This document shows, one piece after another, positions 492-56,230 of a stretch of 64,000 bases of DNA. Numbering within the stretch: the first letter of the stretch is position 1; each line of letters begins with the position of its first letter. The translations under genes and the position numbers were made by a program. Under the pieces are notes generated by a model that worked only from the letters and a program-made list of their open reading frames with translations, was not told the DNA's origin and made no database searches. Source of the DNA: Mariannaea sp. PMI_226 (taxonomy: Eukaryota > Ascomycota > Sordariomycetes > Hypocreales > Nectriaceae). The DNA is taken from contig JANFOG010000002.1 of NCBI GenBank assembly GCA_024336345.1, positions 1,612,001 to 1,676,000 on the forward strand, written 5' to 3'.

Positions 492-3400
492 TCATGACAT
501 GGTCTTCATGAAATCGTCAAGATCGAAACTTTCCTCATATTGCTTGTTGTCCCATAACTCTCCCAGGTCATCCAGCCAAGCCTTCTTTCCAGGCTGTCTT
601 AATACGTCGCCTGTTTCAATATCCACCATGTCTTCTTCTCGTCCTTCTAAGCCATTCTGGGGCTTCTCTGATATGAGACTTGGACCAGAGTCTCCCAAGT
701 TGAACAAATCGAGGATCTGATCTGTATCCATTGTTGAAAGACCTGCGTTCTGCTGATTCACGACTGTTGACGCAACATCAATCTTGAAGCGCTGGAGACT
801 AAGAATCTTCTCCTCCAGAGTTCCGCGTGTGATCAATCGATAAACATTGACGACCTTCTTCTGACCAATTCGGTGAGCTCTGTCCATGGCCTGCAAGTCT
901 TTCTGAGGATTCCAATCATGCTCCACAAAGATGACAGTATCTGCACCCGTGAGGTTCAGACCCAAACCACCGACACTGGTGGTTAGTAGTAGGACATCAT
1001 ATGAGGGGTCGCTATTGAACTTGTTGACAATGTCCTGTCGTTTGTTGGCCTCTACTGAACCGTCGAGGCGCAAGTGTGATACTGAAGGAAGCATCTCCTT
1101 CAACACCTTGTTTTGGACCATATCCAGCATTTCCTTCATCTGACAGAAGATGAGTGCTCTGTGTGGTTTAATAGGTTGATACAAAGGATCGTTGGAATCT
1201 CCTCCCTCAACACCGATACCACAATCCACTAAGAGGTCTCTCAAGGCGGTCAGCTTAGGGGCGTGTTGGGGGTCTTCAATTGATGTGCCTTGTTTCTGTA
1301 GTATTCTCTGTGTATCATCGTAATGGTTGCTTCCGGGTTTCATAACCATGGCAGGCGAATTGCACAGCTTTCGCATATATTGTAGGGCTTGGAAGATGTG
1401 TTGCTTTGCGTCCTTGTCGTCGCGACCAGCCTCTGCTTGGATTTTCTTGCCTTGCTTCTTCGTGAAGTCTTCGAAAAGCTTCTTCTGCAGATCGCTCAAG
1501 TCGCAGTAGTAGTTTTGCAAAATCTTCGGTGGAAGATCATTGAGTACCTCTTCCTTAAGACGTCGTAGCAGGAAGGGGAGAACTTGCTTATGGAGGGCTT
1601 CAATGGCAAGGGCACCAGCTTCCTGCTCTTTCGTTGATGCCTTGCTAAATCGACTCGCGGCGATAGGCTTTGCAAATCGATCCAAGAAGACCTTTTCAGC
1701 ACCCAAGAAACCGGGCATGAGGAAGTCAAACAGAGACCACAGCTCAAGAACGTTGTTCTGGATGGGTGTACCAGTGAGAATGAGGCGGTGATTGCTTGCA
1801 AGGCGCTTCACTGCCTGGGTGATCTTGGCCTTAGGGTTCTTGATGAGATGGCCCTCATCCAGGACAACGTAGTTCCAGTTATGTTTGTCGAGAATGTCGG
1901 AGTCGTTGCGGCAAACATCGTATGATGTAATAACAATATCAGTTTGTCCAAGCCTCTCCTTAATGGCCTTTCGTTCCGAAGGTGGCCCAACGTACGCCGT
2001 AACGCTCAAGAAGGGCGCATAAGTCTTGATCTCCTGCTGCCAGTGTCCAGAGAGTGTGGGAGGGCACACGATAAGGGAAGGCAGCTTTCTAACATCGGGA
2101 GACTCGGTCTTTGCATACTCTTCAGCACGTTGATGGTGGTCGCTCGCCACTATGCAGATAGTTTGAAGCGTCTTTCCGAGACCCATATCATCACAAAGGA
2201 TACCGTGCAGGTGGTATTTGTTGAGGAAATTCAGCCAGTTAACGCCATCCTGCTGATAAGATCGCAGCTCTGCTTTGATTGCGACAGGAATCTGGAATGG
2301 TTCCACTTTCTTGGGGTCAAGCAACTGAGCAATGAAGGTTCGTTCTCGATCTCTGCCCTTGAGCATTTCTTCGGAAAGGCCTGGCGGATCCGGAATGCCA
2401 GTTTCCAGGGGCACAAGTTTCACTAAAGTAGCGAATGAGGTGGTGGCAATCAGCCGAATCTCATTGTCCGAGTCGCTCATGCGTCCGAGAACTGGTACTA
2501 TGAGGAAAATAACGTAGGGTAAAATAGCGTCGCCCATAACAGCAATCAAGTGGTAAACAGCTTCGATGGCACCTTGACGGAAGTTGAGGTCCAAGGGGTT
2601 ATTGATAGAAGGCAGGACCTTCTCGACTAGAGCAGTCATGCCCTCCACGGTGATGACGCTGCAGATTGTGGCCAGGCACTTGGCAGCCATATATCGGAAG
2701 ACGGAGAGTTCGGAGTGGAGAGCTTTGATAACCAAGGGCATCAGCTGTATAACGAAAGAATGCAAGGCGGGGTCGAGTGTTGGTGTCATGGTTCTGATAA
2801 CAGACATGGCGTCAACGATTTCTTGACCAAAGGTCTGTTCAGGATCCTTGGCCTCGGCAGGAAGATCGTTTGTGAACGCCTTGACCAAGGGTTGCTCCAT
2901 GAAAGTCTGTAGGCTAGGCACAACTTCCAGGAGGCTGGCTCCATATGTTTTGGAGAGAATTTCCAAAGCCTCCTTGGCACCGCGTCTCGTGATGCGAGCA
3001 GCCTTTGCTTCTCGAGCCCATTTAGCGGCGTCAGCGTGGTCAACCCGATCTTCCTCCTTTTGCATCGAGAGAACGCAGTCAGTCTTACTGGCATGCACAG
3101 GGAATTCTGGTGTCTCGGCGACCTCAACGCAGGAAAACTTGACCAAGTTTGCAACGACCTTTCCAGCAGGACCCTTTCGGCCCTTATCAGTGAAAAGCTG
3201 CACAAGCCTGGCGATGGTATCCGCTGACCGAGTCTGGAGTAGCTGGTTCTCTTCCAGTTTAATAGAATCCATGACACCCTTGATCAGTGGGCTTGGTTTC
3301 TTGGGCAAGATTTTCATGGCGACCATTGCACAGGCGGCTGCTGCTTTGATGCGAATATCTCGAGCCGCCTTCACGACCTTTGCTTCCTCAATCGTGCTGA

Positions 3401-6394
3401 CCGTAATATCCCGCGCTTCGGCAAGCTGCTGGCTTGCGATGAGTCGTTGACCAGGAGACATGGCCTTCTTCAGCCTCTCATAATCATCGCCGACGCATTT
3501 CTCAGCAGTAGTAATAGAGAAAGCGCTGGGGCCAGCCTCAGCCTCGCCTTGAACAACGACGGGCAGAACAGGCAATTTGCTATGTGACACCTTGCCATGA
3601 TCACGGAAGAAGTGAAGCAGTTGCTGGCATTGCGTGCGGACACGTTGAATGTAGTTGACAAGATCTCTGTAGGATGCCGGACGTTCCGATTCCACGATAC
3701 GCTGTAGGTTATCGATGTATCGAGCGGAATCATCTGGGGACTGACAGTGCTTGGCGAATTCCTCGATAACAGCACAGGCTGTAAGTTGGGTGGATGAATA
3801 AGCTGAGGAGAGTCCGGGAACTAGCAAGGCATCATATTCATCGAGGAACTTGGCTGGAACTGAAGCCATGACAAGACCCATAGCTCTAGCCGCTGATACG
3901 CGTGAGCGTATCAGGACATCCATGCCCACTAGGTCAACATCGCCCTGCATCATATGGCCGTCGACATCGTGGGTTAAGCTAGTGGTAGGGACGTCTTCAA
4001 TCTTGGTAGATTTCCTTCGTCGCTTAGATGCTCGATCAGAGCCATCGGGAGACGACACTTTGCGCGGGGTCTGTTGAACCACGCCTGGCAATGCATAAGT
4101 ACCACCAGATGGTTTCTGGAAAAGCGTTGCGTTCATAGGGATTGGGTTGCGCGAGACACCAATGGGATGCAACGTAAGCTGCATCATGGAGTCAACGTGA
4201 GCTGCAAATTCGTCTGCGAGCACCTCGGGGTTCTTGGCCAGGCTTCTGACCAACGCTGTCCATAGTTCCATTGACATATTAAGAGCATCCTTGTCCCTCT
4301 CGACTAGAATGTTTTGAAATATCAATCTCAAGATTCTTCCAGTAAGCCAGCCCTGTGACGTCTCTTCGCTAAGGTTGGCAAAGGTCAATAGAGCCTTCAA
4401 TACAGCAACGCGGACTGATGTAATCGTGTGTCGCAGGAAGGGGTAGAGGCGAGGCACAAGCAGGGTGAAGGAACGTTCTTCATCCTGAGCGGCGGATGTT
4501 TTCATAGCCTCTAATACCTCGGGGAAGCTACAGAGTGTAGCAAGAAGGTCCATGATACGGCCTGTGCTGGCGCTCAAGTCATCTCCAAGGTTTGAAAGAC
4601 TTTCCCAAATAATATTCACAAGTCCTTCCAGCTGGGTCGGTCGCATTGCAACAAACTCCTTGGCCATTGGGATCAGGGTTGCAGCACTGACGGAACGAAC
4701 GTCATCGTCTATATCACCAAGACCCTTCATTACTGCTCGAATGACGCCGTCAATCATGTCGCCATCCTGGAGAAGCAGGTCTTTTCGCACTGCCACAACA
4801 TATCGCAAACCGATCATGCCGCCATGGCAAACTGCCCAAACCGGCCTGTCAAGTTTGAGATCATCTTGCATGACCATACGGTACAATATCTGATATGTAC
4901 TGTAAACCGATGCCGAAGGAAGGTGCTTCAGAACAGAACCAAGAGATTGTCCCACAGTTTCTCTGATTGGTGCAACAGACGTGTCGGAACTATAATCAGT
5001 GAATCGATCTAGCATGAGGACGCCACAAAGGCGGCATGCGAGGTCATCGAGCCATTGACGATTGAGGGCATCGTTCTCGTCTCGAGTCTTCGATCGTAAC
5101 CTTCCAGCACCTCCACCGTGCACGCGAAGGACCTCTCTCAAACCCATGGCTGCACCATGTCGAGTTTCCCATGAGGGATCAAAGAGGTCCACCTTGAGAA
5201 AATCGCACAACCGTTCATACGGCCACTCAGCACCTTCTATCGACTCTTCCGCCTCGAGTTCCGACTTAATAGGGATGACGGGACCTTTGAACTCGCTTAC
5301 AACTTTAGTATCCTCATCTACATCAGCAGGTCGCTCGAGATTGAAATAGTCGTTCATTTTTCCGTTTTTCTTGGAATCTCCGTCGGCCATTGGGGTATCC
5401 TCATTGAGACCTTCGGATCCTGCGGTCACTGGCCGTCGAATGGAAAGATCACCGAATCCTCCCTTGCCCTGAGAAGCCTTCATGGCTTCCCTTTTTCGTT
5501 TTCTTTTCAAAACATTGAGCTGTCTTGAACTCAATCCAGATTCTTCAGCTGGCTGGCTGTGGCTTGAGGTGTTCATACGACCCACACTGTTGCCATTGCC
5601 ATTATCCAGAGGCGTGTGCGGAGTGGCATCGTTACTAGGGATAGCCATTTCCTCATCCTCGAATTTTCTCCCAAGGAGACCTAATCGCCCAATAAGGGTC
5701 TTCCGTTGATGTTCGAGGCGAGCCTGGGGATCTAATGATGCTAGCCCATACTCGATGCCGCCGCCACGTAGCAGCTCGCGGCCATACTGCAAGATAATCT
5801 CGACATCAAGTGATTCAAGTCTGAAGGAATTGTCTTCTGGTATGCCCGATTCCTTGTCATTTTCCTCCTTCTTGATGTTGCCATTTTCACAGACGGGTTC
5901 CTCCTTCTTGGGCTCATTAGGTTCATCTTCCGAGTTTGGGTCGTGTAGAGGGGCATTTTCAGCAATTTTGCCAATTGCGGATGCAGCTGTCCTCCTTGTC
6001 TCCCAGTCCTTGTGCCGCAGGTATGGTACAACACGGGACAGAAGATTGAACAGCTCATCAGGGTGTTGTTTCTGCCAGTCAGCAAGCTGATTGACAGCAG
6101 TGTCTCGGATTAACCTCGTACTCCCCGTCTCGAGGATCCTGTCACCTGTTAGTTATCTAAATGATAGATGCATTTGGAAAGTTGGAATTAGGTTTGATGA
6201 TTTCCTATGGCAAGTATCTCTCACTGTAGCTGAATTGCCATGAAAGCACTACCATGAAGACACTGCCATGAAGGGGATAACCCAGTGCAACTCAGTGAGT
6301 ACTCACGTGACTAATCTGTCGAGTCTATAGGCATTGTTAGTGAGTTGACAAAGATTTAACCGGGAATGAGAGGGGGAACCAACCTTGAGGCCAT
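492..6394 (-). CDS. MOT1: TATA-binding-protein-associated Snf2-family ATPase Mot1 (BTAF1/TAF172)
   Basis: Mot1 uses ATP to strip TBP from DNA and redistributes it between promoters in the nucleus. The model has three exons on the minus strand: 6394-6384 (11 nt), 6324-6307 (18 nt) and 6138-492. The introns are 59 and 168 nt, with CACTAAC and ATAACTAAC branch sites. The product is 1891 aa, close to yeast Mot1. The start was chosen because the two small exons yield an N-terminus beginning MASRLDRLVT, as in the family. The N-terminal two thirds is helical and HEAT-like, with a charged linker. The C-terminal Snf2 motor starts near residue 1304. It has Walker A DDMGLGKT at 1326-1333, a DEGH box at 1437-1440 and helicase-C motif RAHRIGQ at 1763-1769. 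Identification is very secure; the two 5' micro-exons are the only delicate part. Confidence 0.96.
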
Positions 6395-9300: not shown

Positions 9301-10845
9301 TCAACCCCATCTTGATTCTAAGACCATATCGCAGACAATACAGTAAAAAAACGGTTGCCTGACTGGCTTGGCCGTGTTCCAAGGATGAGCAGAGGACAAT
9401 ACCGTTATGCGGTAGCCTTGTTGCGCTCAGAATATTCGTTGCCTTATATGACGTTGTTTAAGTCTGGAAGTGCGAAACAAATACCACAAAATATTTTCTT
9501 CACTTTCTCTCTCTTCCATAGGAAACGGAAAAAGGTGCACCCAATACTGTGAATTGACGGCGTTGCCTTTTGTTCGTCGGTCTCCTGAGCGGATAGGTAC
9601 TTGCATATATGGAAGTCAATTGACAACGTTACCCACACTGTAGCCCTCTGTCTTAGCCCACGGCAGCTGGATTCTATTCTGCCTTTCCTCTTCCCCTGAC
9701 GATCCCAAGATATCCAGTACTACATACTTCAAGGTTCAAGTGTGCTGAGGAAAAATAAGCAACTCGTAAATACATTCATTTTCTAGTTGAAAACCATCTG
9801 ATAGCTTCGAAACGACGGTGTTGACGGTGTTGATACGGCCGTACACTACGTCATAGTTGGCGCGGGACTATCGCTACGTCGCATGCCATACTGTTCACAG
9901 AATCGAGGGGCACTTTGAACCCCATAGCTTACAATTCCAGAGGCAAAGTGTCATCTGCACGATTGACAGGTGCAACCAGCCCTTGCCTGGAGCATCTAAT
10001 CACATCGAGGATTGAGGCAGAGCGACAGAGCAGAAGGCTGCAACCCCAATAGTATTGGATCTCCTTCGTACTCATGCTAGTTCGCTGGCGAAGACGCGTA
10101 AGAGAGGTTCCCATAGGAGGCGGATTTAGGGTGATTTTGTTACGCGATATGATAGATGGGGAGGTCTCGCTCTTTTCCATCGTACATCTCTTGCATTTTT
10201 TTAATTGGCGTGCATCCATTTTCAGTATACACGTCAATTAACGCCAAAAGTTGCATGGTATTAGGAACGATATAACCGTGCTGCAAAGAATTTCGTTGAA
10301 ACGTCGATGTTCGTGTTAACAACTTAGCTAAAGATAGAAAGAGCAAGTGGTATTTACAAAGACCTGGGCGACAAATCCTTACCATGGGTGTACGCAGTAG
10401 TCAGTAATTACACAGGCGAGCTCCTCCAGCTGCACAGATTACTCCGTATTTTGATCGCCAACAAGGGTCTAATGATTCGAGACCAAGCTTTTTGCTGGCC
10501 AACGCCCGCACGGACCAGATAATAAAGAGCCTGCCCCAGCATTTTTTTTGAGAGGAAGTGACGCGCAGCGATTTAAATGCCTTAGGTACGTACCTACCCA
10601 CAGTCGGTTCGAGGTAGTAATAAAGTTGGCACCTTATAATCAAGGCACCCTCTCACGTCGCAACAGCCACACCCACCACGCGAGAGCCCACTTGATCGCG
10701 GTGCTTGGGCAGACGCGTCGAATCGCATCAGTTCGCATCCCCGAGGCAAAAATCCACAGACAAAGCCGAGACTGCGCTGTGTCTCGCTGACAAGCTCTCT
10801 GACCCCCCCCTCGCATGTTGCGCAAAGGCGCTGGCGCAGCCCATC
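6395..10845. promoter_or_regulatory. 4.45 kb region between the divergent MOT1 and SMC3 genes
   Basis: Both neighbours point outward, so this stretch carries both promoters. No convincing gene was found. Short open frames at 7534-7818, 8002-8289 and 8571-8801 have low-complexity or hydrophobic translations without family features. Visible sequence features are a GATGC repeat near 7145-7165, a (GGCT)n tract near 7350-7368, a long T-rich run at about 7940-7970, TACTCCGTA words at 7919-7927 and 10440-10448, and TACCTA-type words near 8140, 8466 and 10590. A long 5' UTR or a non-coding RNA is possible but not visible. Confidence 0.5.
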
Positions 10846-13800
10846 ATGTATATCAAGCAAATCATCATCCAAGGCTTCAAGAGGTAAGCCGCCGCAACGG
10901 AATCTCCTTCACCCACCTCGTCAATCTCGTCGACATTCGCCGCGTGTGCAATCTATCGCTAACGTCTCTCATAGCTACAAGGAACAAACCGTCATTGAAC
11001 CATTCTCCCCGAAAACTAACGTCATCGTCGGTCGCAATGGCTCTGGAAAGAGTAACTTCTTCGCAGCGATTCGCTTTGTTCTCAGCGATGCCTATACCCA
11101 GATGAGTCGCGAGGAGCGACAGGGTCTTCTGCACGAAGGCTCTGGCTCTGCAGTTATGTCTGCTTACGTTGAGATCATTTTTGACAATAGCGATGATCGA
11201 TTCTTGACCGGAAACAAGGAGCTCGTCCTCCGGCGCACCATTGGTCTCAAGAAGGACGAGTATTCCGTTGACCGCAAAGTTGTTACCAAGACCGACGTCA
11301 TGAACCTCCTCGAAGCTGCAGGCTTTTCGCGATCGAATCCTTACTACATTGTGCCTCAGGGTCGAGTCACTGCACTTACCAACATGAAGGAGTCGGATAG
11401 ACTTAACCTGCTCAAAGAAGTCGCCGGAACTCATGTTTACGAACAACGTCGTGCCGAGTCACTGAAAATCATGAATGAGACAAACAACAAGCGGGAAAAG
11501 ATCGATGAGCTTCTGGTCTACATCAAAGAACGACTGGACGAGCTTGAGGAAGAGAAGGAGGAATTGCGGGGTTTTCAAGATAAGGACCGAGAGAGGCGAT
11601 GTCTTGAGTACGCCTACCACCACCGAGAACAAGTCACTATTCAGTCAGCCCTTGAAGATCTCGATAACGCCCGACAAGACGGCCTAGATTCTTCGGATAC
11701 TAGCCGACAGGAGTTTCTCGATGGAGAGAAGGCCATCTCCCGACTGGATGCCGAGATTCACAAGCTTCAGCGGGAGATGGAGCTTCTCCAAATCGATCGA
11801 CGACAAATGGAAGAAGACCGACGAGATAGCGCGAAAACCCTAGCTAAGGTTGAGATGAAGGCAAAGAACTTGAAGGAGGGTCAGTCTGCCCGAGAGCAGG
11901 CTCGGGCTCAACATGCCGCCGACTTGGGATCCGTCCAATCAGAAATTGCTGTCAAAGAGGCCGAACTTTCCTCCATCCTACCCCAATATAACCAGAGAAA
12001 GGCTTCCGAGACCGAGATTCGCCAAGAGTTGGATACTGCTGAGGCAAAGAGATCCCGTCTTTTCGCAAAGGAAAGTCAAGGTTCTAGATTTAAGAACAAA
12101 TCCCAGCGTGACGAATGGCTCAGAAACGAAATTAGCGAACTGGGAATGACCATCAGCGCTCAAAAGGCCAACAAGATTGATGCTGAGGAAGAAGTGACAA
12201 GAGTTCAGCAAGCAATCGCCCAAACCGAGCAGGAAGTGATGGAATTACGCTCTCGTTTGAGCAACTGGAATGCCGATACCACCAATATTGCAGATGAGGT
12301 GACCAGGGCCAAAGATCTCCTAGAAAAGCTAAACGATGAGCGCAAGCTTGTTAGACGAGAGGATGACAAACTTAACTCGATCATATCCAATGCTCGGCAA
12401 GAGAAGGAGAGTTCCGAACGTGAACTGTCTCATACTATGGATGGGGCCACCGCTCGTGGATTGGCCACTATTCGACGCTTGAAGCAAGAACGGGACATTC
12501 CAGGAGCGTATGGAACATTAGCAGAGCTTCTCGAAGTCAACGATGCGTATAGACTTCCCGTGGAGCAGATTGCTGGTGCCAGTCTATTCCACTATGTTGT
12601 TGACAACGCCGAAACCGCCACCTATCTTGCCGACGTCTTGTTCAGGCAACGTGGTGGCCGTGTGACATTCATGCCCCTCGCCCAGCTACGGCCTCGCAAG
12701 ATGAATCTTCCAAGATCCAATGATGCTGTGCCTCTCCTGAGCAAGATTGCGTATGACGATAAGTTCGAAAAGGCCTTCCAACAGGTTTTCGGCAAGGTTG
12801 TCGTTTGTCCCAACTTGACGGTTGCTAGTCAATATGCCAGAAGTCACGGCGTGGATGGTATCACTGCAGAGGGTGATACGACTAACAAGAGAGGTGCAAT
12901 GACCGGTGGTTACATTGATCCCCGAAAGTCTCGCCTCGAAGCTGTCCAAGCTGTTAACAAATGGCGAGATGAGTATGAGACGCTCATTGGCCAGTCTCAG
13001 GACATACGCAGACAGATCGAGCTCAAAGACCAAGAAATTACCGCCGCTATGTCCGAAGTGCAGAAATATGAACAAAGATTCCGCCGTGCTGAGGATGGAT
13101 TTGAGCCCTTGAAGCATGAGCTACGAAACAAACTGGCGCACTTGGAGACCATGCGTATTCAACTCGAGTCAGCACAGAGGCGCCGTGATGCTGTTGAGAA
13201 GAATATGAACGGTTTCATGCAGGAGGTAGCTGCACATGAAGCTGAAATCGGAACCGACTTCAAGAAGAGCCTTACGACAGCCGAACAGCAGCAGTTGGAG
13301 GAGCTCGGAGGAAGAGTTTCAGAGCTACAAAAGCAGTGGAACGAAATCAGCAGAGCCCGCCAAGACCTTGAACGCCGGAAACAAGTTCTTGAAGTTGATC
13401 TCCGACAGAACCTACAGATGAAGCTCGACCAGCTCAGCAGTCAGGCATTCGAGAACTCTGGGTCGGGATCTTCTACTGGTACCTTGAAGGAGACGCAGCG
13501 AGAACTGAAAAAGGCACAGAGCGCGCTCAAATCAGCCGATGCTAGCCTGCATGAGACGGAAGCCAAGATGAGTGATCTGCTACAGAACTTGGAGCAAAAA
13601 GGCGCACAGAAGGCTGAGCGAGAGCAAATGCAGCAGGAACTCTCGGCAAGAATCGAGAAGCAACAGAAGAGGATGGATAAGAGTCTCAGAAGGAAGGCAT
13701 TGCTGACAACCCAGGCTGCGGAGTGTGCCAAGAATATTCGAGATCTGGGTGTTCTTCCCGAGGAGGCTTTTGACAAGTATGAAAACATGGAAGCCAAGAC

Positions 13801-14659
13801 TGTGAGTAATTTGTGTGAAATAGACTGCAAGACGCAAAAAAAACTGACTTAGGTATACTGCAGATTACCAACAAACTCAAGCGAGTAAATGAGGCGCTCA
13901 AGAAGTACAAGCATGTCAACAAGAAGGCATTTGAACAGTACAACAACTTCACTACCCAGCAAGATCATCTGATGAAGCGACGTAAGGAACTGGATGATTC
14001 CCAGGCATCCATTGAAGAGCTTGTGGAGCACTTGGATCGTCGCAAAGACGAAGCCATTGAGCGAACTTTCAAGCAGGTGTCCAAGGAGTTCTCAACCATT
14101 TTCGAGAAGCTGGTGCCTGCTGGTCATGGCCATCTGGTTATCCAGAGAAGAACTGATCGCCGCCCAGAACCCGAGGAGTCAGACGACGAGGGTGGACGCG
14201 GCAGCGTGGAGAACTACGTCGGCGTAGGCATCAGCGTTTCGTTCAACTCCAAGCACCTGGATGAACAGCAACGAATCCAGCAGCTTAGTGGAGGTCAAAA
14301 GAGTGAGATTTCCACCCCCCCTTTGTGTATCAATGACACCACGTTTCTGACAGTAAACAGGTTTGTGCGCTCTATGCCTCATTTTTGCCCTCCAGCAGAC
14401 TGAGAGCAGCCCCATGGTCATCTTCGACGAGGTAGACGCCAATTTGGATGCGCAATACCGAACCGCCGTCGCCGCTCTCCTTGACTCCATCTCAAACGAG
14501 GCTGGAACCCAGTTTATCTGCACCACGTTCCGACCGGAGATTGTCCATGTCGCAGACAAGTGTTACGGCGTGACGTTCAGGAACAAGACCAGTGGAATCA
14601 ACTGTGTCAGTACCGAGGATGCGCTCAATTTCGTCGAGGGACAAGCGAAGCCTGCCTAA
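10846..14659 (+). CDS. SMC3: Cohesin subunit SMC3
   Basis: SMC3 pairs with SMC1 to form the ATPase core of cohesin, which holds sister chromatids together and shapes loops. Four exons: 10846-10883, 10975-13801, 13864-14302 and 14361-14659. The introns are 91, 62 and 58 nt. The product is 1200 aa, the usual SMC3 length. The N-terminus begins [12 protein letters not shown], and the next residue is completed across intron 1. Walker A GRNGSGKS is at residues 32-39. A coiled coil follows, then the hinge at about 515-665 and the returning coiled coil. The ABC signature LSGGQKS is at 1096-1102, and Walker B has D1124 and E1125 followed by VDANLD. The third intron interrupts the signature between K1101 and S1102. 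The start is fixed by the conserved N-terminus. Confidence 0.97.
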
Positions 14660-33192: not shown

Positions 33193-34435
33193 GACTGATG
33201 AGGGTTCGAAGAATTATTTGAGTTGAAAGATGGTAGCGGAAATAGAGAAGCGCGTGGCTCGATGGATGGATGGATTGATGGTTGGATTGATGGAGAATGA
33301 AGAGATGGGGAGGGAGAAGAGGGAGAAGATGGGCAATGGGCAAAAGCGGCCGAGGAGTGATCTTGTGGGTTCAGTTGCCGCTCCCCGTGCTGAGATTGAG
33401 ATCCGGCTCAGCCTGAGGAAGGTCGCGTAGTAGCGAAGAAGGATGCGTCTGTGCCGGAATCAAGTCGCAACCAGTGGCTGAAAGCGAGAAGGGGTTGGGG
33501 ACAAAGGGGAAGATTGATTGATAGGTAGGCAGGCGGATTTGAGAAGCAGAGTTGGGGGTAAAGGGGAGGAAGGGGAGGAAGGGATAACCGAGAATTCAGA
33601 AGCTGGAGGGAGAGTTCAAGGCTTACTGGGCATGGTTGAGAGAGAGTGGGCTGGTTGGTGGTGGTGGTTGTGGTGGTGTGTGGGCGAGACTCCACGCCCA
33701 GCACGGAACACAAGGGCCTGCAATTGATGGATATACAGACGATGCAAAGTTGAAGTGCTTCGTGTATCAAGGTCGGGGTTGATGAGTGTTTTATTCGCAC
33801 GCAACAGAGACTGAGAACGAGTGCTGCAGATAGAATAGGAAGGGATTATTAGGAGGTACGGGTTAATTACAAGCAAGGTACGGAGTAGGAATTAACTAAG
33901 GTAGTTAAACAAACAATGCGCGCGCGTTGGCGCAGTGCAGTAGCCAAGGTACAGATTACTGTGCCTAATAAAGGGTCCCATTCGCGGCTCCTACCTACCT
34001 ATCCGTTCGAGATGGAGCCGGGGGAGAGAAGAGCTAGTGTACCTCATGCAGCCAGTCCGGAAGCTGTGTAGGTACAGTACCTACGGGACTGACAATACAT
34101 ACGTAGTAGGTGTTGCACAGTAAGAGCGAACTTAGCCACAGGGGCAAGGACGAACGGGACGTGGCTTGACATGGCACTGTGGCTGAACAACCCCCTGGCT
34201 CCCCAAGTCAGTTTGTAGTCCTCTAGTCTGTAATCAGGTACCTACCTTAGGTCTAGGCAGGTAAATCTGTACCTCCCGTCTTTCTCTCCCAAATCCCCAC
34301 TAATAAATTCCACCACCACAGAAGGTGTTGGATTACCCAAGATTTTACGTGGAGGGGACTCTCGAGAGAAAGCTAACGAACCCTCCCCTGAGCATCCATC
34401 CTCAAATTCCGTGAGCGTGCAAGTTCCCTGCCAAC
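33193..34435. promoter_or_regulatory. Shared upstream region of the NHP10-like gene and CCT8
   Basis: A 1.24 kb divergent region. It contains TGGATGGA and TTGATGGT short repeats near 33260-33290, GGGGAGGAA repeats near 33563-33585, GGTGGTGGTTGTGGTGG near 33657-33675, a TACGGAGTA word at 33879-33887 and TACCTACC words near 33992 and 34240. No gene accepted. Confidence 0.5.
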
Positions 34436-36442
34436 ATGTCGCTCAATATCCCCAACGCCCCTAATGCGGGCCTCTTCAAGCAGGGCTACAACAAGTGAGT
34501 TCATGACCATCCTGCCAGTCGCCGTCAATTTGCCATGCTCGTCTCTGTTTCTTTGTTTCTCTGTCCCTCTACTGCATGTGGTGGCAGCGAGCTCCCCGCC
34601 ATTTGCCCCCTCCATGATATTCTATGTCTTCGACATCCTCAAGACAACACATAATGCACACAATCCAATATGGAATCAAGTGAAAATCACTCTCTTCTGG
34701 CTCTTAACTAACATTCGGATTTTTTACTACGTCAGCTACGACTCCGAAGATGGCGCTGTCCTCCGCAACATCGACGCATGCCGTGCCATTGCTTCCACCG
34801 TGCAGACCTCTCTCGGTCCCTATGGCCGCAACAAGATCGTCATCAACCACCTCCAGAAGATGATCCTCACCTCCGATGCTGCCACCATTCTCCGCGAGCT
34901 CGATGTCGTCCACCCCGCCGCTAAGCTTCTCGTCATGGCCTCCCAGCAACAGGAGTCTGAGATGGGTGACGCGACCAACCTTGTGATTGTCCTTGCTGGT
35001 GAGCTTCTGCGAAAGGCCGAGGACCTACTACGCATGGGTCTCAAGACGTCTGATATTGTCATTGGTTACGAGAAGGCCCAGAAGTTTGCTCTCGAGTCTC
35101 TCGAGGAACTTTCCGTCAACAAGGTGGAGGATATGCGTGACCAGGAGGAGCTGAGCAAGGCTCTACGCACTGTCATCGCCAGCAAGCAGAACGGCAATGA
35201 GAACTTCCTCGCTGACCTTGTTGCCGAGGCTGTTCTCGCTGTCCTCCCCAAAAACCCCGCCAACTTCAACGTCGACAACATCCGTGTCGTCAAGATCATG
35301 GGTGGAAGCCTAGACCAGAGCAGAGTTGTCAAGGGCATGGTCTTCCCCAAGGAGCCTACTGGCTCTGTCAAGAAGGCCCGTCGTGCCAAGGTTGGTGTTT
35401 ATACCTGCCCTATCGATATCAGTCAAACAGAGACCAAGGGTACAGTTCTCCTGAAGAACGCCAAGGAGATGATCGACTTCACCAAGGGAGAGGAGACCCA
35501 GCTCGAGACCACCATCAAGGAGCTCCACGATTCAGGCCTGCGAGTCGTTGTCTGTGGTGATAAGATTGGTGATCTGGCCCTCCACTACCTCAACCGCTAT
35601 GGTATCCTTGCCATCCGTATTCTCAGCAAGTTTGAGCTCCGAAGAGTCTGCCGCGTCGTTGGCGCTACCCCACTTGCCCGTCTAGGTGCCCCCATGCCCG
35701 ATGAGATGGGTACCATTGACGTTGTCGAGACTCTTGAGATTGGTGGTGACCGTGTTACTGTGTTCCGACAGGAAGATGAGGTTACCCGTACCGCTACCCT
35801 AGTCCTCCGCGGCGCCACCCAGAACCATCTCGATGATGTTGAACGAGCCGTCGATGACGGCGTCAACGTTGTCAAGGCCATCACCCGTGATCCTCGACTG
35901 GTCCCTGGCGCTGGTGCCACAGAGGTGCAGCTTGCCGAGAGGATACAAGCCCACGGAGAAAAGACTCCTGGCCTCAGCCAATACGCCATCAAGAAGTTTG
36001 GTGAGGCCTTTGAAGTCGTTCCCCGAATCATCGCTGAGAGCGCTGGTCTGGACGCTACCGAAGTCCTGAGCAACCTGTATGCTGCTCACCACAACACCAA
36101 TAACTGGGATACTGGTGTTGATATCGATGTAAGATTCATTGCCTGGTAACTCTGTGCAGCTCATACTTACTCTCATACACAGGCCGACGATAAGAGCTGT
36201 ACTATTGACACTAAGGAGGAGGGCATTCTTGACCTTCTCGTCTCCAAGCAGTGGGCTATCAAGCTCGCTACCGAGGCCGCCCGAACAGTCCTCTCAGTCG
36301 ACCAAATTATTGTGGCACGACAAGCTGGTGGCCCCAAGCCCCCAGGTCCCAACCCTGTAAGTTCAAAGTCTATGAACGCTCCCCCTTGTACATACATACA
36401 GCTGCTAACACCCCCCTCTTCAAGAACTGGGACGAGGACTAG
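34436..36442 (+). CDS. CCT8: T-complex protein 1 subunit theta (CCT8)
   Basis: Theta subunit of the cytosolic chaperonin TRiC/CCT, which folds actin, tubulin and WD-repeat proteins with ATP. Four exons: 34436-34494, 34736-36128, 36183-36356 and 36425-36442. The introns are 241, 54 and 68 nt. The product is 547 aa, the family length. Characteristic segments are SLGPYGRNKIVINH near 48-61, the TSDAATILRELDVVHPAAKL region near 67-86, the ATP-site motif read here as GDATN at 97-101, and PGAGATE near residue 412. The last exon is only 18 nt and encodes NWDED and the stop. The first exon encodes the conserved N-terminal MSLNIPNAPNAGLFKQGYN. Identification is secure. Confidence 0.96.
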
Positions 36443-37913: not shown

Positions 37914-40900
37914 TTAGGCCTCTTCCATGATGCCAACCTCGCCGCCGCCATCTTCGCGCCATTCACGGCTCTTCTCCGTGAGACGCTTCACGCCGCCAAC
38001 ACGTCCAGCCCAAAGACTCTCAATCGGAGTACGGAAAGTGAATGCCCTCTGGGAGCTGATGACGCCAATTGCCTGCAACACGGCTTTTCGACTGTCGCGA
38101 CTGAAGACTGCAGGATGGTTGATCCACTCAAGACTACTTTCGAGCTCCGCGTCCAAGGAATGAACAGTGTTGGCGTCAATGCCGCTGCTAAGGCCTAGAC
38201 CGTCGTTGGAACGACTACGGCCGATTTGTTGACCAGGCGCGAATCCATTTGCGCCAGAGGAGGTCGCCGAAGCAGGAGGAGAAGGACTATTTTTTCGATC
38301 AGGGCTGGCCGAAAGACCAGAAGGGCTATCGCTCGCAGGATGAGGCGTCGAAGGCGTTGATCTATTGTTCATTGGGGGAATGGGAGGTAGACCACCCTTC
38401 CCAAGCCCCTTCAGGATAGACCGGGTTTCGTTCAGGAGGGTGTGAGCGCGGTCATGCTGGCCACGACTCACCAGAGTCAGAGCACGAGTGAGCATGTCTG
38501 AGGTGAGCAATTCCATACGGCGTTGCACAATGCTGGGGTGAGGGGGAATAGGAGGTGAGTTTTGCCAAGGCTTCTTTGAACTTGAAGTAGCTGGCAACAT
38601 GGTGATGGCCAGTAGGGATGGGCGAGGCATCTGAGTGACTGTGCCATCACGCAAAATATCTCCCCAGGTGAGGTCTGCCTGAATCAGAGGTACTTCCTCA
38701 ACGGACAATGTACGCTCACCATCAGTATCGACCGAACCGCCCAGTGCCTCGAGTCCGGAAACAATATTATCCCAGGGATCTTGAGGGAGTTGCTCCTGAG
38801 ACGCGTTGTCAGGAAGAATCACGAGCTGAACAAGAACATCACGCTTGTCACCGAACCTCAGGTCGCCGAGGGATGCTTCAGCATCCCGTCCAGTAGCTCG
38901 CTTGGTGATCTGCAAAGCACCGCTGATCTTATGGAACTTGGCCGGGGAACCCTCGGGCAATTTGAGCTTGAGCTTGACGTTCTGGTGAGATAGAGTCTGC
39001 ATGCTGCCGAGACAGCCAGCAAGGCACTCTCGAAGCATCATCCAATCCTTGACATAGGTGTACGACGCCTTGGTTCGTGTGGAAAGCTCGATCATGGTAT
39101 CGGGTTTATGTGTCATTCCCAGTCCGAAGGAGTGAATTGTGATCTTGGCGGCCTCGGCTCTTGAGACAACGAAGTCGACACTATCGGCATCGGAGGTGGA
39201 AGCGTCACTGATAAGCATAATGGAGGCGATCGGGTTGTTATGCTTGCGTTGCATAAGCAGGTCCATTGCAACGTTGGCACCTTCAACGACGTCCGCGCGA
39301 TGGCTCTTCTGACCCACAGGCTTGATCGAAGACAGGATATTGCTCCATCCTGGCCAAGCCTTGGTCGTCATACCAACAATTGGAACACCACCACCACCAG
39401 ACCCGAATGTAACAAGGCCCATGCGATCGCGGTCACCAAGAGTGTTCACCATAAACTTCAAGGCGTCGCGAACAAGGTTGATCTTGACTCCCTGCATCGA
39501 GGAGGAAATGGGAACCACAATAACGACATCAATCGGGACGTGGATAGACGTAAGCATCGGGCTCTTCGGAAACGTAGTATACTCGGTAGGGGCTGTAGTG
39601 GCGGAGCGAGCACCACCCCAAGAAGAGGCTACCGAGGAGACTCTCTGTGGTCTAGATCGCTGCCAATCCTCCTCATCTGTCTCTGATACCTCTCCGCGAT
39701 CAAAGTCAGGGCTTCTCACAGGAGACGTCTCGATCGCGTTGAGATCGGCCAAAGCCTGCTGCCATAGCTTGAGCTGGTTGCGATTTTCGAAACGTAGGTG
39801 AAACTGTGGCAGCTCGGCAACAGAGAGACTTAGAGTCAGAACATTCTCATCGATAGCTCCCGTCTCAGCTACCTCATTGAGGTGCTTCTTGATGAGAATC
39901 GAGCCCTTCAGAGTACATCGAGTAGGTTTGCGTGCCACGCTGCCATCGTCCCACTGCTGTGCCATATGTGGTGGAATCTTCTTCTCCTTGACACAAATGA
40001 GCATCTCAGCAAAGAGAAAACATTCCAGCTCTTGCCATGAGACTTTATCCTTCCCAACTCGAAGGGTACCGTACAGTCTCAACTTTCCAAACCTACTGAA
40101 GTCAAGGCCGTGCCAGTTCTCCACTCGGTTGCGTAGATTCTCGGTCATCTCTTCCAAAACTTCTGCTGACTCATAAGGATAGAAGCGTGGCGCGCTGCGA
40201 GCCGGAGACGGTGGTCGACCGTACGTTTCTTCAATTCGCGGGTTAACTGGTGTAGGCTGTGGAGCTGGCACCCCTAGATCTTCAGGATCAGGTCTCCATT
40301 TATTGTCTGGTACCTCAACAGTGACCAAGCAAGTAAGAGTCTGTTGCTGGCGTGAGCGACTCATTGTTGGGAACTCAGAACGGACAGTGACAAGAGGCGC
40401 AGGGATTGGATTGCGAGTAATTGGTCGCGGGTTCGCGGCAGGTGTCGTCTCCATAGCCTGAACATCGTAGTCATGGCGCCGATGAGGTCCGCCACTCTGG
40501 GTTGTTTCAGGGTAGCCCCCGGATGACGCGACTCCTGTGGCCTCGCTATCACTTCGGTTATGCCGTGAAGCTCCGTATCGATCGGAATCCCTAGTGTCTC
40601 TATGGCCTCTCGGGGCACTGTCTCGAGTAGCAAGAGAAGCACCAATCGAGCCAGCAATCGATGCTTGCTGTACTGGGCGCCTCTGAGAGCTCTCGAGGCT
40701 GGGAGGGCGAACTGTTTGACTATCCCATGGAGTCGCGCTGGGAGTGGGTGTAGGAGATAGAGCCGATCTAGAGTCAACATTGGCAGAACGCACAATGTTG
40801 CTGATTTTCTCTGCGCTATGGTCAGAAGTCGTCGTTCAAAAAAAAAAAAAAAATACAAGCTCAATTGCATTAACATACCAATATCAATCACATTGCCCCC

Positions 40901-41572
40901 TCGGCTAGTGTCGAGATGCAGCGGTGCATCGCATGTAGGACAGTACTGCGATTCGAATTCTCGAATGAATTCATAAAAGCACGCCTCATGAGAGACGTGG
41001 GAACACGAAAATTGGAGAATTCGCTCGCCGCGCAGAGTGTGCTCAAGCGGTTCCTCGCATACAGCGCACTCACTGCCTACAAAAGTTCGCTCTCTCCGAG
41101 AGCGGCTTCTATCCGTGTTGCTTGACATTATGTTGTTATCAAGACCACCAACTCGGCGCGAAGCGCTACTGACTCCTGATCTAACAGAGATCGTGGACGA
41201 GTTGGATTGTTGGCCGTGGTATTTGGTTTTGGGTGCAGGTTTTTTTAATCGAGCTAGATTGAAGGTATCAGTAAGCAGTTTCGAAGAGAAGTGGAAAAGA
41301 GGAATACGGAATATCCGTCACGCCCCAAAATGTAGGAACGCAGTCCAAATCAAAGGCTCACGCGTACCTCTCTCAGGAACAGGAGCTGCATCAGTAAAGG
41401 ACCTGGATCCTAGGATTGATTCGGAGCGGTGGCCGCTAGATTTGGAACCCAGTGAACCAACCAAACCGAGCTCACGAAGATTTGAAGTAAAGCTTCTGTC
41501 GTCGTCGTCGGAAAATTTACTGGAGATTGAAGGAGAGTCGTAAACTTGAGTCTTGCGAAATCGCCGAAACAT
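37914..41572 (-). CDS. RING-H2/PH/VWA protein, Far1/Ste5-type scaffold architecture
   Basis: Three exons on the minus strand: 41572-41368, 41253-40879 and 40810-37914. The introns are 114 and 68 nt. The product is 1158 aa. The RING-H2 has ligands C131, C134, C152, H154, H157, C160, C173 and C176. A disordered linker follows. A PH-like domain at about 436-551 begins LRLYGTLRV and ends in the amphipathic helix LKLWQQALADL. A von Willebrand A domain covers about 617-805. In its MIDAS the expected Asp of D-x-S-x-S is Pro627, while S629 and S631 remain. A Pro/Ser-rich C-terminus follows, with a helical block near 960-1000. RING, PH and VWA in this order are the hallmark of the budding-yeast pheromone scaffolds Far1 and Ste5. 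That suggests a scaffold for Gbeta and a MAP-kinase cascade, but it is inference; fungal annotations often call such proteins only RING/VWA proteins. Confidence 0.85.
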
Positions 41573-54270: not shown

Positions 54271-56230
54271 TCATGGACGGCGCTGTTTCCCAGAGAACAT
54301 ATCTATCAATGTCTTCTGCTTTTTCTGATTCGTCCCAGACTTGGCGTTGCTGTTGCGTTTTCTTTGCTGGTCAGCCCCATGGTCATCTAGGTCAGCGTGG
54401 GCGCCGTCATCGCTGTCAAACTCATCTTGCATCTCTGCTTCATCTCCGTGTGGAAACTTCTCTCGCCATGTCCCATCCAAGACTTCACTGTCATTACCAT
54501 GAAGGCCAACGCTAAAGGCTGTCTTCATCGCATTCAGACAGATGTTCCTCCGCTCAGAAAAGTCAAACATCGGTTTGGGATATGTTCCCTCTTCCTTGTC
54601 CGTTAACCCGTCACCCTTGATACGTACACCGGCTCTCCTTTGATCTGGCAAAGGCGCTTTCCACGGCTCATAGATGTACTTTTCATCCATGTTCTTTAAT
54701 TCAGGTACCCATCGACGAACGAAGTTGCCCTGCTTATCCCACTTCTTCCCAAACGAGATAGGGCTATAGCATCGATAGTATTGCGAGAAGAAAGCCGTGC
54801 AAGACAGCCATTGCCAGTTCCCAGCATTGCAGGCCGGTTCGTGGTCCAGCAGCCACTCTTCAAAGACTTCGCATCCCCGCTCCCAATCGACATAGCACCC
54901 GCCTCTGGTGAGGAAGCATGCGACGCTGTGGCGCCCGAGATGATGGATCCAGCCTTCCTCTTTGAGCTGGCGCATGAGAGCATCGATCCACGGGAAGCCT
55001 GTGACGCCATTTTTCCATCTCTTGAACCACTGTTCGGCTTGTTCAGAGTCAACATGATACTCTCCTGTGATCATGTCTGTATCGGGATCCCTCTTGGACG
55101 GTAGATGCCAAGGGATAAATCGACAGTACGGGTTCTTCGCGGTTTGACTGAAAACACTTCCCAGAGCTGCCTGGGCTGCGAAATACATATCTCGGAAAAG
55201 CAACTGGCCGATGAGGCTTTCTGGTGGTGTCGAAGCCCCTTTGCCGAATTCATCGACAACCTCTTTGACGCGCCAATAAAACTCTCGAACGGAGAGCGCA
55301 CCGAAGTGTAAGAAGGGCGAAAGAAGAGTTGTCGCTTGAGGCTCAAATTGAGCGGGGTTTGTCCTAGGTTTTTCAAACGTCGCTGTGTATCTCTTATTGG
55401 CGATGATCTTCTCGAGTGACTTCAGAGCTACCGTTTCCCCTCCACGATGAGGAGTTGTGGCGGATGGAAATCCCAGCTCCTCCATGGTTTCTATGGCGAA
55501 ATCCCCGTTAGGCCCCGAAATTTGATTGTAGCCTGTATCCTTTTCAGTCCTCACTTCCTTGTTGAGGTCGGTATTCGTGTCGGGTTGGTCTTGTTCAAAG
55601 CCCACGGGCATCTCTCCGGGATTCGGCAGATGATCCGGAGCTGGTATTGGTTTGCGGATCTTCCCAACTTTCTTTCCAGCCTCCTGAAGCTGGGTGATGG
55701 ACATTGTAGGCTTTCCTCCGTGCTTCTCGACCACTTGGTCGCTGTCCCAAAGAGTTCTGCCGGAGCGGACGATGACCTCAACGCCCGCGTCTTGGGCGGC
55801 CTGGGCAACAACACCATCTCTTTCGCGAGCATAATCATCGGTGTCTTTCTCAAATACTAGATGGGTCACCTCCCAGGCTTTGAAGAGCTTTGGAAATAGT
55901 GTCTGGGGCGCTTCTCTTAAGACGAACAGCTTTGAGTTGGGGTTGAGCTTGGTTATGGAACTAGACAAGTCATTCTGGCAGTCCAACCTGATTCCCGGTT
56001 AGAATGAAAGCTTCAGGCGCTCTCGGTGGCCTAAAATAAGATATTGCCTCTTACAGAAATTGCCATCGGTTCAGACCTCCCCTTGCTCGATAGACATAGT
56101 GCGGATCCCAGGTAAAAATAGGCCACAACACGTCCGGATCAAGGTCCAAGGCAGCCTTGAGAGCCGGAGAGTCATGGAGGCGTAGATCCGTACGGAACCA
56201 GTATATTACTCTTGGGTTTCCCTTTGCCAT
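54271..56230 (-). CDS. (6-4) photolyase/animal-type cryptochrome
   Basis: A flavoprotein that repairs (6-4) UV photoproducts with blue light; fungal members also act in light signalling. Two exons on the minus strand: 56230-56055 and 55987-54271, with a 67-nt intron; the product is 630 aa. The N-terminal alpha/beta antenna domain starts near VIYWFRTDLRLHDSPAL. The FAD-binding helical domain includes LLSPFLHFGALSVREFYWRV near 280-299 and GNWQWLSCTAFF near 448-459. The catalytic histidine pair of (6-4) enzymes is present as H408 and H412 in WIHHLGRHSVACFLTRGG, which favours a (6-4) enzyme over a CPD photolyase or DASH. The C-terminus is acidic, then basic, and ends with a PIP-box-like peptide at 616-623. 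The start is the ATG nearest the conserved N-terminus. Confidence 0.92.

What the first reader, a model, noticed from the sequence alone, without database searches (positions are those of the whole stretch)
37914..41572. RING-H2/PH/VWA protein: a Far1/Ste5-type scaffold in a filamentous fungus
One protein combines an N-terminal RING-H2 (C131, C134, C152, H154, H157, C160, C173, C176), a PH-like domain (about 436-551) and a VWA domain (about 617-805). That domain order is the signature of the yeast pheromone-pathway scaffolds Far1 and Ste5, where the RING binds Gbeta, PH binds phosphoinositides and VWA engages the MAP-kinase kinase. Filamentous fungi are usually described without a Ste5. The gene may organise mating or cell-fusion MAPK signalling here, possibly without any CDK-inhibitor part. 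The domain order is read from sequence; the scaffold role is inferred.
Basis: partly seen in the sequence, partly recalled or inferred. Interest (0 to 1): 0.75.

Follow-up and report, generated by a model that had tools for sequence, protein, structure and literature searches.

The report
Known fungal mating scaffold (Far1-like/Fmp1)
The gene is a real RING-PH-VWA protein, and it looks like the filamentous-fungus copy of an already described mating-signal scaffold (Far1-like, also called Fmp1), so the main point is known; what stays open is whether it shares descent with the yeast scaffolds Ste5 and Far1.

Summary
A three-exon gene at 37914-41572 (minus strand) encodes 1158 residues with the eight RING-H2 ligands at the positions stated, a PH domain (Pfam PH_10, E 1.9e-30) and a VWA domain (E 1.1e-13). 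The genome matches Mariannaea sp. PMI_226.

Relatives are described as BcFar1 (Botrytis, PMC4010548, which names NCU07565 and AN5167) and Fmp1 (Cryptococcus, PMC9790007). A Fmp1 fragment binds the MAPK Cpk1, and deleting Neurospora NCU07565 is reported to impair perithecia. Cote et al. 2011 (not held; seen through citing papers) surveyed these scaffolds.

What I add:
- The first MIDAS Asp of the VWA is lost in 101 of 101 aligned rows.
- The PH belongs to the same Pfam family as that of Cdc24.
- The predicted VWA, beta-sandwich and helices together match ArnB-type and, by Foldseek, Sec23/24 structures.
- The RING lacks the full E3 signature.

Homology to Ste5 stayed inconclusive: Ste5 VWA structures were not listed by sequence (E up to 10) or among the 50 fold rows shown. 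A vegetative hyphal-fusion role is unlikely; a sexual one is supported in relatives.

The parts
37914..41572 (-). Far1-like/Fmp1-type gene, three exons (41572-41368, 41253-40879, 40810-37914), 1158 aa
   Evidence: P0001 of Mariannaea sp. PMI_226 is 100% identical over 91% of the query
40919..41077 (-). RING-H2 finger, aa 128-180
   Evidence: eight ligands; weak Pfam zf-RING_2 E 8.4e-4, below cut-off; ligands kept in 30 of 30 ascomycete rows
40443..40556 (-). conserved linker between RING and PH, aa 279-316; candidate kinase-docking stretch (inference from position only)
   Evidence: high identity at most positions in 60 homologues of 1100 aa or more; Ste5 has its Fus3-binding segment between RING and PH (PMC9048679)
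40314..40394 (-). first strands of the beta-sandwich, aa 333-359
   Evidence: AlphaFold2 model, strands at model residues 16-21, 25-27, 33-42
39750..40097 (-). PH domain (PH_10), aa 432-547
   Evidence: Pfam PF15411 E 1.9e-30; seven strands and C-terminal helix in the model
39033..39530 (-). VWA domain, aa 621-786
39498..39512 (-). degenerate MIDAS (aa 627-631, P-I-S-S-S), first Asp missing
   Evidence: P in 30 of 30 ascomycete rows, S (65) or A (6) in 71 of 71 basidiomycete-side rows
38817..38993 (-). beta-sandwich, second part, aa 800-858
   Evidence: model; 4fx5 and 8s05 align across it together with the VWA
38595..38699 (-). beta-sandwich, third part, aa 898-932
   Evidence: model
38397..38537 (-). 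helical hairpin, aa 952-998
   Evidence: model
38052..38174 (-). C-terminal helices, aa 1073-1113
   Evidence: model

Best explanation
This is the Mariannaea member, most likely the orthologue, of the Far1-like/Fmp1 scaffold of filamentous ascomycetes and basidiomycetes. Most likely, after a pheromone receptor fires, the N-terminal RING region binds free Gbeta-gamma and helps the protein self-associate, the PH domain helps hold it at the membrane, and the MIDAS-less VWA with its beta-sandwich and helical part acts as a protein-docking surface. That surface brings the Fus3/MAK-2-type MAP kinase, and probably its MAPKK, to the receptor during mating and fruiting-body initiation. Shown in relatives: domain order, need for mating or fertility, MAPK binding by a Fmp1 fragment holding PH, RING and VWA. 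Inferred: orthology to the tested genes, Gbeta-gamma, lipid and MAPKK contacts, and any polarity (Cdc24) arm.
For: Domain order and near-identical positions to BcFar1 (1173 aa; RING 134-186, PH 428-566, VWA 632-812) against 1158 aa with RING 128-180, PH 432-547, VWA 621-786 here. No second copy found in the genome at E 0.01. Listed close homologues are 72-89% identical (BLASTP) over 73-100% of the query; basidiomycete-side rows are 25-34% identical by alignment. Fmp1: deletion almost abolishes cell fusion in two Cryptococcus species, delta-NCU07565 is defective in perithecia, over 91% of Fmp1-affected genes are also regulated by Cpk1, MBP-Fmp1(735-1690) pulls down Cpk1 (PMC9790007). Pheromone receptors STE2 and STE3, a Ste12-type factor and Ggamma are present in this genome. 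MIDAS Asp lost in 101 of 101 rows, as one would expect of a docking rather than metal-dependent VWA (inference). The RING lacks a full E3 signature in both groups.
Against: Delta-bcfar1 in Botrytis had no obvious phenotype (PMC4010548; the word apothecia does not occur in its main text, so sexual crosses may not have been tested). HAM-5 already scaffolds MAK-2 in Neurospora and is also needed for perithecial development (PMC6455062), so a second scaffold could be partly redundant. I found no Gbeta, lipid or MAPKK contact shown for any filamentous member. Candida albicans Far1 is tabulated without detected interaction with Ste11, Hst7, Cek1 or Cek2 (PMC6693483), so a Far1-like protein need not carry kinases. 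PMC9790007 itself judges Fmp1 and Ste5 remote or unrelated. Sequences of NCU07565, BcFar1 and Fmp1 were not compared directly.
Confidence: 0.68

Rival explanations
1. It is a polarity adaptor (Far1 mode): it couples Gbeta-gamma to Cdc24/Bem1 to orient trichogyne or hyphal growth, and MAPK effects are secondary.
For: BcFar1 was found by BLASTP with yeast Far1p, with similarity in the RING only (PMC4010548). PH_10 was found at three places in this genome: this gene, Cdc24 (CDC24, RhoGEF, PH_10 and PB1 together) and a small gene. Candida Far1 is tabulated without detected contact to MAPK-cascade kinases (PMC6693483).
Against: A Fmp1 fragment binds the MAPK Cpk1, and over 91% of Fmp1-affected genes are Cpk1-regulated. 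[quoted passage not shown]
Confidence: 0.18
2. It is a RING E3 ubiquitin ligase of the plant WAV3 kind, as some database names say.
For: Names on P0026, P0035, P0087. Solved structures matched by the RING include many E3 RINGs, all weak (best E 0.00023).
Against: Ascomycete rows have no Arg/Lys after the last Cys (0 of 30; N 13, D 12, E 4, F 1). Basidiomycete-side rows have no Pro after C7 (0 of 62 with a residue there), though 54 of 71 have Arg (the E3 signature itself is recalled). No Vwaint family listed up to E 1 (HMMER's filters drop most matches above 0.1).
Confidence: 0.1
3. On descent (a separate question from function): the family works like Ste5 but is not related to it; RING, PH and VWA were combined independently.
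For: PMC9790007 found no orthologous relation by reciprocal BLAST and judged the VWA models markedly different. Here Ste5 VWA entries (3FZE, 4F2H, named in PMC10584130) were not listed by phmmer or two profile searches up to E 10.
Against: Same three-domain order and same pathway in two phyla, unlikely by chance (inference). BcFar1 was reached by BLASTP from Far1p via the RING. Ste5 is reported as the least conserved pathway member even among yeasts (PMC9048679).
Confidence: 0.3

Closest known systems
BcFar1 (Botrytis cinerea), with NCU07565 and AN5167 (PMC4010548)
   Same: Length, RING-PH-VWA order and positions.
   Different: Four introns reported against two here. Its deletion showed no obvious phenotype.
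Fmp1 (Cryptococcus deneoformans CNF00230; PMC9790007)
   Same: PH, RING and VWA; mating role; Neurospora homologue NCU07565 tested.
   Different: Longer protein (construct runs to residue 1690). The paper doubts homology to Ste5.
Ste5 and Far1 (Saccharomyces cerevisiae)
   Same: Domain order RING, PH, VWA (Ste5: 177-229, 388-518, 593-786; PMC9048679).
   Different: No sequence match found to Ste5 VWA chains; here more than 300 residues follow the VWA, with a beta-sandwich and helices.
ArnB-type proteins 8s05 and 5a8j and bacterial VWA protein 4fx5 (fold only); Sec23/24 by Foldseek
   Different: About 11-12% identity; a PH is inserted before the VWA; no coat function implied.
HAM-5 (Neurospora MAK-2 scaffold)
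   Same: Scaffolds the same kind of MAPK cascade.
   Different: Different fold (Gbeta-like according to PMC13144348); no such domain here.
Cdc24 (this genome, L010)
   Same: PH domain of the same Pfam family PH_10.
   Different: CDC24, RhoGEF and PB1 domains.

Membership tests
Far1-like/Fmp1 family of filamentous fungi and basidiomycetes | RING, PH and VWA in this order at matching positions | tested here: met
   against positions in PMC4010548
Far1-like/Fmp1 family of filamentous fungi and basidiomycetes | no second copy in the genome; relatives in ascomycetes and basidiomycetes | tested here: met
Far1-like/Fmp1 family of filamentous fungi and basidiomycetes | direct sequence match to NCU07565, AN5167, BcFar1 or CNF00230 | not tested
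   I did not see these exact sequences among the listed proteins; orthology inferred
Far1-like/Fmp1 family of filamentous fungi and basidiomycetes | needed for mating; binds the mating MAPK | not testable with these tools
   reported for Fmp1 and, for fertility, NCU07565
Ste5/Far1 family (Saccharomycotina) | RING-PH-VWA order | tested here: met
Ste5/Far1 family (Saccharomycotina) | sequence homology to the Ste5 VWA (3FZE, 4F2H) | tested here: inconclusive
   not listed up to E 10 by one sequence or two profiles; Ste5 diverges fast
Ste5/Far1 family (Saccharomycotina) | structural match to the Ste5 VWA or PH | tested here: inconclusive
   not among the 50 rows shown; PH barely tested there
Ste5/Far1 family (Saccharomycotina) | Gbeta binding by the RING, MAPKK and MAPK binding | not testable with these tools
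   needs binding assays
Ste5/Far1 family (Saccharomycotina) | CDK-inhibitor segment (Far1 only) | not tested
   no yeast Far1 sequence was at hand
WAV3-type RING-VWA E3 ligase | Vwaint domain after the VWA (feature recalled) | tested here: not met
   not among the 14 families listed up to E 1
WAV3-type RING-VWA E3 ligase | RING with hydrophobic residue, Pro and Arg/Lys linchpin for E2 (signature recalled) | tested here: inconclusive
   V and P present but N, D, E or F at the linchpin in 30 of 30 ascomycete rows; Arg in 54 of 71 but no Pro in basidiomycete-side rows
HAM-5 | Gbeta-like fold | tested here: not met
   no such family; PH, VWA and sandwich in the model

The most novel reading that the evidence does not exclude
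The RING-PH-VWA protein is the ancestral pheromone scaffold of Dikarya. It is built on an ArnB/Sec23-24-like core (split beta-sandwich, VWA without metal site, helices) into which a Cdc24-type PH was inserted, so one protein once served both polarity and MAPK branches. Yeast Ste5 and Far1 would be trimmed, fast-evolving descendants, and the view that mating scaffolds arose independently in each lineage would be wrong for this one.
Probability: 0.35. Interest if true: 0.5.

Novelty: already known. Interest (0 to 1): 0.22.

Why it matters
A paper on Neurospora cell fusion states that filamentous ascomycetes lack a STE5 orthologue (PMC4238974), and a 2026 paper describes MAPK scaffolds as not evolutionarily conserved (PMC13144348; the name Fmp1 does not occur in it), while two other papers describe this very family. 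Joining these strands makes a clean test possible in Neurospora: HAM-5 for vegetative fusion, NCU07565 for Gbeta-gamma-dependent mating. For the genome itself the result is ordinary: a conserved part of the mating pathway whose public name (Pleckstrin homology domain-containing protein) is uninformative.

Tried and rejected
A first AlphaFold2 run on P0001 with 40 close homologues failed (mean pLDDT 34.1) and was not used. A second run with 123 rows worked better (mean pLDDT 72.7, 202 of 813 residues below 50).

Yeast Far1 and Ste5 sequences could not be obtained: homologue searches list only the best 120 of 655 and of 173 hits. Ste5 VWA entries were absent from sequence searches of the PDB and from the 50 rows shown in each fold search; this does not exclude them.

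MAP-kinase docking motifs: seven loose pattern matches, none striking and five within folded parts; not used. SP/TP sites: 20 in the protein, 13 of them aligned as S/T-P in 48 or more of 60 homologues; possible phosphorylation, no claim made.

MATalpha HMG-box gave no match in the genome, and nothing rang in the controls either: no conclusion.

A vegetative-fusion scaffold role was put low because of HAM-5, the lack of Gbeta-gamma need in germling fusion and the bcfar1 result.

Papers: seven searches; I judged most entries by the listing only. Of PMC9790007 I read section 8 and passages; of the other papers opened, passages only: PMC4010548, PMC13144348, PMC9048679, PMC4238974, PMC6455062, PMC3718343, PMC6693483, PMC10584130, PMC8022970, PMC6382970, PMC5578929, PMC4438637, PMC10607740, PMC7711526. 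The far1 of Monilinia in PMC10607740 is an unrelated 82-residue protein; PMC5578929 and PMC7711526 speak of yeast Far1 only in the passages shown. Most subscription papers are not held.

Full report
Observation. The genome is that of Mariannaea sp. PMI_226: P0001 is 100% identical over 91% of the query, and its contig length (4,505,408) equals that of the window's contig. The deposited model has 1048 residues and starts 110 residues later. Of the 119 other listed homologues (P0002-P0120), the 60 that are at least 1100 aa long all start with Met, and M1, F2 and R4 of the longer start are kept in at least 90% of them, so the longer model is preferred. The eight RING ligands, the PH and the VWA are where stated. 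The RING scores below Pfam's cut-off on its own, but its ligands are kept in 30 of 30 ascomycete rows.

Relatives. In the first search 655 proteins passed E 0.001 among 7987 scored; the best 120 were listed, and the named ones are, to my knowledge, Sordariomycetes. Forty of the 120 were scanned, and 40 of 40 match PH_10 and VWA. A search with the length window moved up found one protein, P0121 of the smut Thecaphora frezii, 28% identical over 54% of the query, with the same order of parts. Searching from it gave 173 hits, best 120 listed, the named ones nearly all basidiomycetes. The own genome showed no second copy at E 0.01. Database names for the family disagree: Protein STE5, E3 ligase WAV3, related to CDC24.

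Two details bear on mechanism. First, the MIDAS Asp of the VWA is Pro in 30 of 30 ascomycete rows and Ser (65) or Ala (6) in 71 of 71 basidiomycete-side rows, the 101 rows being a choice from 240 listed proteins; metal-dependent ligand binding of the integrin kind is therefore unlikely (inference). Second, PH_10 was found at three places in this genome: here, in Cdc24 (CDC24, RhoGEF and PB1 beside it) and in a small gene. The RING shows V and P but N, D, E or F at the linchpin position in ascomycete rows, and R without P in basidiomycete-side rows (the E3 signature is recalled), which speaks mildly against a standard E3.

What is in print. PMC4010548 (passages) describes BcFar1 with RING, PH and VWA, names NCU07565 and AN5167 as orthologues, and reports no obvious phenotype on deletion. 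PMC9790007 (section 8 and passages) names the Cryptococcus protein Fmp1, reports mating defects on deletion in two Cryptococcus species and in Neurospora (NCU07565, perithecia), an overlap of over 91% with Cpk1-regulated genes, and a pull-down of Cpk1 by a fragment with PH, RING and VWA. It also argues that Fmp1 and Ste5 are remote or unrelated. Cote et al. 2011 is not held; PMC3718343 cites it for at least one scaffold in basidiomycetes and ascomycetes except Schizosaccharomyces, and from memory its abstract says that Pezizomycetes have a single Far1-like protein. A Pseudogymnoascus genome paper tabulates far1 as present (PMC4438637). [quoted passage not shown] PMC6455062 says ham-5 is also needed for perithecial development.

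Mechanism. Best supported: a receptor-proximal mating scaffold. RING to Gbeta-gamma, PH to membrane and VWA core to kinases are inferred from yeast; MAPK binding and need for mating are reported in relatives. Receptors STE2 and STE3, a Ste12-type factor and Ggamma are present in this genome. Against: no phenotype in Botrytis, HAM-5 as a scaffold for the same cascade, and Candida Far1 tabulated without kinase contacts.

Membership. It meets the features of the Far1-like/Fmp1 family that could be tested here. Membership in the Ste5/Far1 family by descent is undecided: order met, sequence and fold comparison inconclusive. Verdict: observation confirmed, interpretation partly supported, already known; interest 0.22.

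Noticed in passing
window 41129-41572 (and P0001): The deposited Mariannaea protein starts 110 residues late (at MSSNTD, 41128), missing exon 1 and the start of exon 2.
   Followed up: yes
P0152: A protein of this family is filed under the fern Adiantum nelumboides, among Exobasidiomycete-like entries; it looks like fungal contamination of a plant assembly.
   Followed up: no
P0122, P0124, P0125, P0130, P0134: Ustilaginomycete members are named 'related to CDC24', most likely because of the shared PH_10 domain.
   Followed up: partly
L011 926-1554 (PH_10 at G000:C1:5270479-5270697): A third PH_10 stretch in a small gene; no other Pfam domain was found in the two frames scanned.
   Followed up: partly
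window 495-6152 (-): DUF3535, SNF2, Helicase_C and HEAT repeats: looks like a Mot1/BTAF1-type protein.
   Followed up: no
window 34392-36146 (+): TCP-1/cpn60 chaperonin subunit beside the gene.
   Followed up: no
window 54274-55998 (-): DNA photolyase/cryptochrome family.
   Followed up: no
window 10640-13849 (+): SMC-family ATPase with hinge domain.
   Followed up: no
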